From the NCBI GenBank assembly GCA_021797675.1, contig JAJZZH010000111.1:1-57159 (forward strand): a stretch of DNA of 57,159 bases, in the 5' to 3' direction. Position 1 is the first letter of the stretch. Each line of letters opens with the position of its first letter. Shown here piece after piece: positions 54,741 through 55,755 of the stretch. The notes beneath the pieces were generated by a model that searched no databases, was not told where the DNA came from, and saw only the letters and a program-made list of their open reading frames with translations. The position numbers and the translations under genes are program-made. The stretch is from Bacillota bacterium. Its GTDB lineage: Bacteria > Bacillota > Sulfobacillia > Sulfobacillales > Sulfobacillaceae.

Positions 54741-55058
54741 GTGGCCAAATGGGTGTTGGCGACCACTTTGGATCGCCTAGTTGAGGGGATGCCCCGCTTG
54801 GTGCGGGTTGGCGGCGATGACATTGCGGTGTTTCGCGTGGGTGATGAAGTGCACGCCATCGACGACCTCTGCTCGCACGCTGAGGCATCGCTTAGCGAAG
54901 GAGAACAACGAGGCTATACGATTACCTGCCCACAGCACGGGGGTAAATTTGATATTCGCACCGGCCGGGCGACCCGTTTCCCCGCCGTCTCTCCAGTGCG
55001 ATCCTACCCGGTTCGGGTAGAGGGCAACGACGTGTTGATTGACACCGGAGCCTCGTAA
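54741..55058 (+). CDS. Rieske-type [2Fe-2S] ferredoxin
   Basis: A small soluble Rieske protein of 105 residues. The cluster ligands are Cys44/His46 in 'IDDLCSHAEASLSEG' and Cys63/His66 in 'ITCPQHGGKFDIRTG'. The N-terminus resembles NirD/BphF-type ferredoxins. It starts with GTG 3 nt after sufB and ends the suf operon, so it is probably a client of, or electron donor to, the Suf system; the partner oxygenase or reductase is unknown. Confidence 0.9.
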   Translation: MAKWVLATTLDRLVEGMPRLVRVGGDDIAVFRVGDEVHAIDDLCSHAEASLSEGEQRGYTITCPQHGGKFDIRTGRATRFPAVSPVRSYPVRVEGNDVLIDTGAS

Positions 55059-55071
55059 CCACGAAAGACGC

Positions 55072-55096
55072 GCGCCCGTACCCACGGGCGCTTCGT
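55072..55096 (+). terminator. Terminator of the suf operon
   Basis: A GCGCCCGT / ACGGGCGC 8-bp stem with a 4-nt loop lies 14 nt after the Rieske stop and is followed by TTCGTTTGCT. ACGAA upstream can extend the stem with TTCGT. It marks the end of the collinear housekeeping part. Confidence 0.75.
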
Positions 55097-55244
55097 TTGC
55101 TCTCGTGCCAACGGGAATCAGCCCTCCGGTACGATCATCGAACCTTGGGCGGCTGTGCCACCGTCCGGTGGATCGGGGAGTCGTGGATAAGCATCCGAGT
55201 CCTGACTCATGACACACCCGCGCATTGCATCATTTAGAAATTGA
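55097..55244. other. Unassigned stretch left of the TnpB remnant
   Basis: No trusted gene. It contains a 6-bp inverted repeat (CCACCG/CGGTGG around 55157-55172). A minus-strand frame (55118-55303) is open but has no recognisable family. Confidence 0.4.
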
Positions 55245-55484
55245 GCGTTTGCGGTTAGACTCTCGCCAAACACTCGCCAGCATGGCCGTTTAATCGAACC
55301 CATACGTCTTGAATCGGGCGTACAGGACGAAAAGCAAACACCTCAGCGGAAGGTGTTGTCCATGAAAGTCGTTTTGAGCCGTCTCCGTGGCGGAAATGTT
55401 GTAGCATCCATGAAACGCGGATGCGAGAGTTCGGCAGAAGGATGGACAACAAAGAGTCCCGGGATTTTACCCGTGGGAGATTCA
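55245..55484 (+). mobile_element. IS200/IS605-type TnpB 3' remnant with omegaRNA-like structure
   Basis: After a stop at 55242-55244, a frame reads like the proline- and arginine-rich tail that follows the zinc finger of some TnpB proteins ('RLIEPIRLESGVQDEKQTP'). The same DNA folds into three hairpins: 55337-55357 (7-bp), 55404-55424 (6-bp) and 55457-55478 (TCCCGGG with CCC-GT-GGGA), the last resembling the right end of IS605-family elements. The nuclease domains are absent, so only the 3' scar is left. The call rests on pattern memory. Confidence 0.4.
55337..55484 (+). ncRNA. Candidate omegaRNA-like structured segment
   Basis: Three consecutive hairpins with GC-rich stems overlap the end of the TnpB-like tail, where omegaRNAs of TnpB systems are normally encoded. 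The right-end hairpin ends near 55484. No left end or intact TnpB is nearby, so any activity would need another nuclease. Transcription is not shown. Confidence 0.3.
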
Positions 55485-55661
55485 GCCCGGGGTGCATGTA
55501 AAGACCAACGCCACAAAGACCTCGAATCGTTAACGATTCGCATTACCGCGGAGGACATGGATCAGTTGAAACATCTCGCCGAGGAGTATGGAGTCGGACA
55601 TACCACGATCGCACAGATCCATCGAGAACTCAACGATCTGCGTCCTCTCGCCAATCATTGA
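55353..55661 (+). pseudogene. RHH (CopG-like) antitoxin fragment fused to TnpB tail
   Basis: From about 55515 the same frame changes to a ribbon-helix-helix domain: 'KDLESLTIRITAEDMDQL' then 'AEEYGVGHTTIAQ', typical of CopG/BrnA-type antitoxins. The part before it (ILPVGDSARGACK) comes from the TnpB scar, so the original 5' end of the antitoxin gene seems to have been replaced. The composite has 102 codons from an upstream start, or fewer from an inner ATG (55557). Its C-terminus 'IHRELNDLRPLANH' is short. Partner toxin: the PIN remnant at 56236. Confidence 0.5.
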
Positions 55662-55755
55662 CCTGCAGAGGATAGGCCCTCGTGGACTGGTGAAGTCTGG
55701 CCCACGGCCCAACCGACGACCATTCACCGCGAAAATTTGGCGCCGAATGTGGGTT

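What the first reader, a model, noticed from the sequence alone, without database searches (positions are those of the whole stretch)
55245..55661. TnpB/omegaRNA scar fused in frame to an antitoxin fragment
The tail of an IS200/IS605 TnpB with its structured 3' end continues without a stop into an RHH antitoxin domain. The element seems to have inserted in or near the antitoxin start, then lost its body. A leftover omegaRNA-like RNA could act with a TnpB made elsewhere.
Basis: inference. Interest (0 to 1): 0.55.

Follow-up and report, generated by a model that had tools for sequence, protein, structure and literature searches.

The report
Decayed IS605 transposon tail beside pseudogene
This is the leftover tail end of an ordinary bacterial jumping gene, stuck inside a broken fragment of an antitoxin gene; it is real but most likely dead, and not a working fusion or RNA system.

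Summary
Positions 55222-55485 are the last 264 nt of an IS200/IS605-family element: 23 codons plus stop of tnpB (TAA 55291-55293), then the structured right end, ending at TTCAG|55486. A complete relative is 2245 nt and 79% identical over the shared stretch. A covariance model from seven copies finds the same RNA just 3' of tnpB in 10 of 10 named Bacillaceae loci it had not seen, and its stems covary: this is the omegaRNA/right end. It abuts a CopG-type (BrnT/BrnA-like) antitoxin remnant.

The "in-frame fusion" is wrong: tnpB stops before the RNA and lies in another frame; the 102-aa ORF starts inside the right end. Against an intact relative, the antitoxin piece lacks its N-terminal part, carries a one-base frameshift and a six-base deletion, and has no toxin beside it.

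Action in trans is not supported: no close TnpB in this assembly, no second good guide target, no promoter-like site, a weakened fold. It is most likely an inert, ordinary scar, with printed precedent for tnpB-tail-plus-right-end remnants.

The parts
55222..55293 (+). Last 23 codons and stop (TAA 55291-55293) of a tnpB gene; the rest of tnpB, tnpA and the left end are missing
   Evidence: tblastn of L044 TnpB residues 498-520, 74% identity, E 3.7e-5; the DNA match of the 2245-nt parent element begins at 55222
55294..55485 (+). IS605-type right end and omegaRNA scaffold; model R1 matches 55303-55485; ends GATTCAG
   Evidence: (R1 187.5 bits; the window is one of the seven training rows)
55486..55503 (+). 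Position where the guide would begin; it is antitoxin-remnant DNA. One further site in the genome with up to 3 mismatches (it has 3); the reversed control pattern also gives 1
55489..55661 (+). CopG/RHH antitoxin pseudogene fragment; 1-nt deletion near 55503-55512 and 6-nt deletion between 55617 and 55618 relative to intact L078
   Evidence: family from the intact relatives (PF12441)
55353..55661 (+). 102-aa ORF that starts in the right end and runs into the antitoxin remnant; a chance ORF, not a TnpB fusion
55072..55091 (+). Terminator-like hairpin after the sufB/Rieske genes, which would reduce read-through into the scar (consensus match only)
54741..55058 (+). Rieske-type ferredoxin gene; the alignment with the same-genus genome ends with it

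Best explanation
An IS605-type element (left end, Y1 tnpA, tnpB, right end carrying the omegaRNA scaffold) once inserted into the antitoxin gene of a BrnT/BrnA-like toxin-antitoxin pair. A later deletion removed the left end, tnpA, almost all of tnpB, the toxin and the start of the antitoxin. What is left is the last 264 nt of the element joined to a decaying antitoxin fragment. The tail cannot move by itself (no left end, no transposase) and very probably does nothing; the 102-aa reading frame across the junction is accidental. Shown: identity and boundaries of the tail, right boundary of the element, disabling changes in the antitoxin piece, absence in the same-genus genome examined. Inferred: order of events and lack of function.
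For: The parent element L047 is 2245 nt from TTAC| to TTCAG|, with a Y1 transposase (PF01797, E 2e-39) and a 520-aa TnpB. Its last 260 nt match window 55222-55485 at 79% and nothing else of it matches nearby. R1 finds the same RNA 3' of tnpB on the same strand in 16 of 29 TnpB loci fetched by protein alone (L048-L076; E <= 0.05; 15 distinct places), in 0 of 37 other IS loci given (L005-L042 without L023), and in 10 of 10 named Bacillaceae loci (E <= 3.4e-7). 18 of 23 pairs show changes on both sides; 92.8% of cells pair against 67.0% in shuffles and at most 55.4% when slid. After the boundary the next base is G10 T10 A7 C4 in 31 other copies. The predicted TnpB matches TnpB-omegaRNA structures first (8h1j, 8iaz; mean pLDDT only 65.5). 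Antitoxin decay. No toxin remnant: best tblastn E 0.87. Same-genus G001 aligns at 84% up to the end of the Rieske gene and not beyond.
Against: The window copy still reaches 187.5 bits against R1, although it is one of R1's training rows. Most paired positions are kept, so retained RNA function cannot be ruled out by sequence. The insertion-then-deletion order is not observed directly; no empty site at this locus with an intact antitoxin was found. The frameshift rests on one draft assembly.
Confidence: 0.9

Rival explanations
1. The scar is a working stand-alone omegaRNA: transcribed, loaded into a TnpB made elsewhere in the genome, and directed by guide DNA taken from the antitoxin remnant.
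For: The genome carries other TnpB loci (28 PF07282 matches) and other TnpB-less copies of this right end (L002, L003, L004). The scaffold is largely intact.
Against: The closest TnpB of this clade in the assembly is 34% identical, and its own right end scores only 9.1 bits with R1. No second good guide target. No promoter-like site, a terminator-like hairpin upstream. The window fold is z -1.09 while two relatives are -3.66 and -4.22.
Confidence: 0.05
2. The 102-aa ORF is a real, selected fusion protein with a new N-terminus read from the right end and an RHH DNA-binding C-terminus.
For: The ORF is open for 102 codons and keeps much of the RHH motif.
Against: It starts with GTG inside a covarying non-coding RNA; its first segment is not TnpB in any family search. 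The RHH piece lost two residues of its second helix and its own N-terminal part, and Pfam finds no family above cut-off in it. A 135-nt stretch stays open by chance in 42% of samples. Outside the window's own genome, searches find the two halves only in different genomes.
Confidence: 0.03
3. Contig misassembly joined an IS605 right end to an unrelated antitoxin fragment.
For: The genome is a draft of 242 contigs with repeated IS ends, seven of them at or near contig ends.
Against: The junction is inside a 57-kb contig, the right-end copy is unique (next best 90% over 112 nt), and the boundary is exactly TTCAG as in other copies.
Confidence: 0.03

Closest known systems
PATE-like IS605 remnant in Halanaerobium hydrogeniformans (PMC7290912, passages and section 3.8 read)
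   Same: A few dozen nt of the 3' end of tnpB plus a whole right end, no tnpA (there: last 58 nt of tnpB plus a 160-nt right end; here: last 72 nt plus 192 nt)
   Different: That element keeps 28 nt of left end and so might still move; here the left end is gone and the flank is an antitoxin pseudogene
ISDra2 TnpB reRNA/omegaRNA (PMC8612924, abstract and passages read)
   Same: RNA from the 3' end of tnpB and the right end, followed by about 16 nt of flanking DNA as guide
   Different: Here tnpB and tnpA are missing; the RNA family has no Rfam match in the searches made
PATEs and terminal-only IS605 transposons of Haloquadratum (PMC3119063, passages read)
   Same: Core deletions that leave only ends or short C-terminal remnants of the transposase genes
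   Different: Archaeal elements; repeat-mediated deletion was proposed from strain comparison there, not shown here
BrnT/BrnA-type toxin-antitoxin pair with CopG antitoxin (PF12441)
   Same: The intact relative L078 has a 98-aa BrnT-like gene (30.7 bits, cut-off 34.5) and a 94-aa antitoxin (33.1 bits, cut-off 28)
   Different: In the window only a frameshifted C-terminal piece remains and no toxin

Membership tests
IS200/IS605 insertion sequence (IS605 group) | Y1 (HUH) tnpA | tested here: not met
   Absent in the window (best tblastn E 0.10); present in the parent L047. The window holds a remnant, not an element.
IS200/IS605 insertion sequence (IS605 group) | tnpB gene | tested here: not met
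   Only the last 23 codons remain
IS200/IS605 insertion sequence (IS605 group) | Right end with hairpin and fixed terminal bases | tested here: met
   TTCAG at 55481-55485, flank base free to vary in 31 other copies; terminal hairpin pairs kept
IS200/IS605 insertion sequence (IS605 group) | Left end directly 3' of a short target such as TTAC | tested here: not met
   No left-end match in the window near the scar; TTAC precedes the left end in L047, L003 and L045
TnpB omegaRNA (reRNA) | Conserved, covarying structured RNA overlapping or following the 3' end of tnpB | tested here: met
TnpB omegaRNA (reRNA) | Transcribed and bound by a cognate TnpB | not testable with these tools
   No expression data; no close TnpB in the assembly
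CopG/BrnA antitoxin (PF12441) | Pfam match above cut-off | tested here: not met
   Window fragments: PF12441 not listed at E <= 1; the intact relatives L078 and L079 pass
CopG/BrnA antitoxin (PF12441) | Adjacent cognate toxin gene | tested here: not met
   Best tblastn of the L078 toxin in the whole window E 0.87
TnpB RNA-guided nuclease (parent protein, L044/L121) | RuvC acidic residues | tested here: met
   D258, E366, D466 invariant in 10 sequences; assignment to RuvC I-III by position and recalled motifs. NCBIfam guided_TnpB 75.2 bits, below its cut-off of 100
TnpB RNA-guided nuclease (parent protein, L044/L121) | C-terminal zinc ribbon with four cysteines (recalled) | tested here: not met
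   0 or 1 Cys between aligned residues 430 and 466 in 10 sequences

The most novel reading that the evidence does not exclude
TnpB-less copies of this omegaRNA (the window scar, and better the 274-nt left-end-plus-omegaRNA element L003 just upstream of gltX) are a pool of stand-alone guides that a TnpB supplied in trans uses to hold or regulate their sites.
Probability: 0.05. Interest if true: 0.55.

Novelty: new member of a known kind. Interest (0 to 1): 0.13.

Why it matters
It matters little by itself: it is a clean example of how an IS605 element decays to its guide-RNA end. What is reusable is the covariance model of an omegaRNA family that matched no Rfam entry here, shared by TnpBs of the window's family and of Bacillaceae, and the observation that this TnpB clade lacks the zinc-ribbon cysteines while keeping the RuvC residues. 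Those make the clade easy to test for RNA-guided cutting.

Tried and rejected
In-frame TnpB-antitoxin fusion: rejected on frame and stop codon. Minus-strand ORFs over the same stretch: no family match. Rfam: nothing at gathering score in the window, only two chance-level matches at E <= 10, nothing in nine related loci. Toxin remnant in the window: none. Second guide target: one site with 3 mismatches, as many as the reversed control pattern gave. The C95 copy of the L003 left end was followed up in the hope of an autonomous partner in this genome: the match stops after about 95 nt and unrelated DNA follows. PDB by sequence: only chance matches; by predicted fold, TnpB and Cas12f, with a low-confidence model. 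In one search I gave wrong coordinates for L045; one search replaced it. In one search the last TnpB row printed (L131) was translated in a broken frame and was not used. L023 was left out because it overlaps L021. Paper searches; passages or one section read.

Full report
What is there. The window is contig C98 of a 4.06-Mb draft genome of 242 contigs. Upstream of the finding lie sufB (TIGR01980, 722.7 bits) and a Rieske-type ferredoxin gene, downstream an OsmC-like gene on the minus strand (54.6 bits). BLAST of 55225-55700 against 41 genomes, the window's own included, found 4 with matches. The best outside its own is G024, 79% over 257 nt, and there the match is the end of a complete IS605-type element.

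The parent. In L047 the element runs 2245 nt from directly after TTAC to TTCAG. It has a left end with a palindrome (sequence), a Y1 transposase (PF01797, E 2e-39), a 520-aa TnpB-like protein and the structured right end. The TnpB scores 75.2 bits with NCBIfam guided_TnpB, below the cut-off of 100, and only E 0.018 with Pfam OrfB_IS605. Its predicted fold (mean pLDDT 65.5) hits TnpB-omegaRNA complexes first (8h1j E 6.9e-8, 8iaz E 2.3e-7). Relatives at 45-48% identity are found in Parageobacillus, Anoxybacillus, Texcoconibacillus and Salsuginibacillus (10 loci besides the query's own).

The scar. Of the parent only the last 260 nt match the window, at 55222-55485, and nothing else of it lies nearby. 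55222-55290 encodes ALHHLEIERLRLDSRQTLASMAV, the TnpB C-terminus; its relatives end in SMG plus one residue. TAA follows at 55291-55293. From there to 55485 is the right end.

Is the structured right end real? A model (R1, 172 positions, 23 pairs) was built from seven copies, window included. Scanning 34 family genomes, 17 have matches at E <= 0.01. Among 73 loci given, 16 of the 29 TnpB-clade loci L048-L076, fetched by protein only, have a match at E <= 0.05, in every case 3' of tnpB on the same strand (L072 has a second, partial match at its edge). Two of the 16 are the same place and one (L065) is a 25-nt piece. None of the 37 other IS loci (L005-L042 without L023) reaches E 0.05. In the 10 named Bacillaceae loci, not used for the model, 10 of 10 match, at E 5.4e-16 to 3.4e-7. 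On 23 matches 18 of 23 pairs have changes on both sides and 92.8% of cells pair; shuffles give 67.0%, slid structures 37.6-55.4%. That alignment was fitted to the model, which favours it. RNAalifold on the same alignment, free to choose, predicts 16 pairs, 13 with two-sided changes. On the first seven copies alone the covariation term was not favourable (1 of 23 pairs), so the support comes from the wider set.

Boundary. In 31 other copies taken at the end of the model match the next base is G10 T10 A7 C4, while the ending TTCAG is nearly constant (exceptions L045, L004, L058 and L071). So the element ends at 55485, and a guide, if any, would start at 55486, at the antitoxin remnant. That matches the printed layout of reRNA/omegaRNA (PMC8612924, passages; PMC10278001, passages).

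The antitoxin. 34 family genomes were searched with the RHH fragment; 4 have a match, the window's own included. The best other, G047 (76%), is a 94-aa CopG antitoxin (PF12441, 33.1 bits, cut-off 28) just after a 98-aa BrnT-like gene (30.7 bits, cut-off 34.5). Alignment shows that the window lacks the first part, has one base fewer in the stretch after GGGGTGC, and lacks six bases in the second helix. No toxin is left anywhere in the window (best E 0.87). So the piece is a pseudogene, with the caveat that a one-base indel in a draft can be an error.

The fusion. The tnpB frame (55222) and the ORF frame (55353) differ by 131 nt, not a multiple of three, and tnpB has stopped before the RNA. The ORF's first part is right-end sequence read as if coding. 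An open 135-nt stretch occurs in 42% of sampled stretches. The claim of an in-frame fusion fails.

Age and setting. The same-genus genome G001 aligns at 84% through sufB and the Rieske gene and stops there; no element and no antitoxin follow in the stretch held. The scar sits in a lineage-specific stretch, as far as this one comparison shows.

Could it act? G000 has many TnpB relatives (28 PF07282 matches), but of this clade the best is 34% identical (a 36% partial match also exists on C115), and that locus's right end gives 9.1 bits. Window guide 55486-55503: one further site in the genome with up to 3 mismatches, equal to the reversed control. No promoter-like site and a terminator-like hairpin at 55072-55091. 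The window's core fold has z -1.09 (30 of 200 shuffles as good), L044 -3.66, L003 -4.22, L004 -1.77. All this fits decay. It does not exclude a residual role; none of these tests is decisive alone.

Known kind. Remnants made of a tnpB tail plus right end are described: a piece of about 271 nt with 28 nt of left end, the last 58 nt of tnpB and a 160-nt right end (PMC7290912, section 3.8), and core-deleted IS605 elements in Haloquadratum (PMC3119063, passages). My paper searches for Sulfobacillus with TnpB (0 papers) and Anoxybacillus with TnpB (1 paper, listing only) found no description of this clade in that library; most subscription journals are not in it.

Noticed in passing
L044/L121 and L122-L130 (TnpB clade): A TnpB clade with three putative RuvC acidic residues (D258, E366, D466) invariant but 0-1 cysteines where the zinc ribbon should be, and a shared SMG-type C-terminus; L044 lies below the NCBIfam and Pfam cut-offs.
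   Followed up: partly
L003 1501-1774 (-), G000:C213: A 274-nt element with left end (after TTAC) and omegaRNA but no tnpA or tnpB, ending 12 nt upstream of the gltX start codon; an 83% identical copy is in another genus (L045, G010).
   Followed up: partly
L046 1504-1741: A truncated copy of the right end abuts two 31-nt CRISPR-like repeats (90% alike, 67 nt apart), near genes that look like type III CRISPR proteins (judged by eye).
   Followed up: no
G000 C7, C27, C35, C113, C128, C159, C121 (L112-L118): Seven near-identical right ends of a second, related IS605-type element sit at or near contig ends, each followed by different DNA: probably a recently active multi-copy element collapsed in the assembly.
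   Followed up: partly
L152 1501-1599 (G000:C95): A solitary left end (88% to that of L003) whose match stops after about 95 nt and is followed by unrelated DNA that includes a transposase-like ORF (judged by eye).
   Followed up: partly
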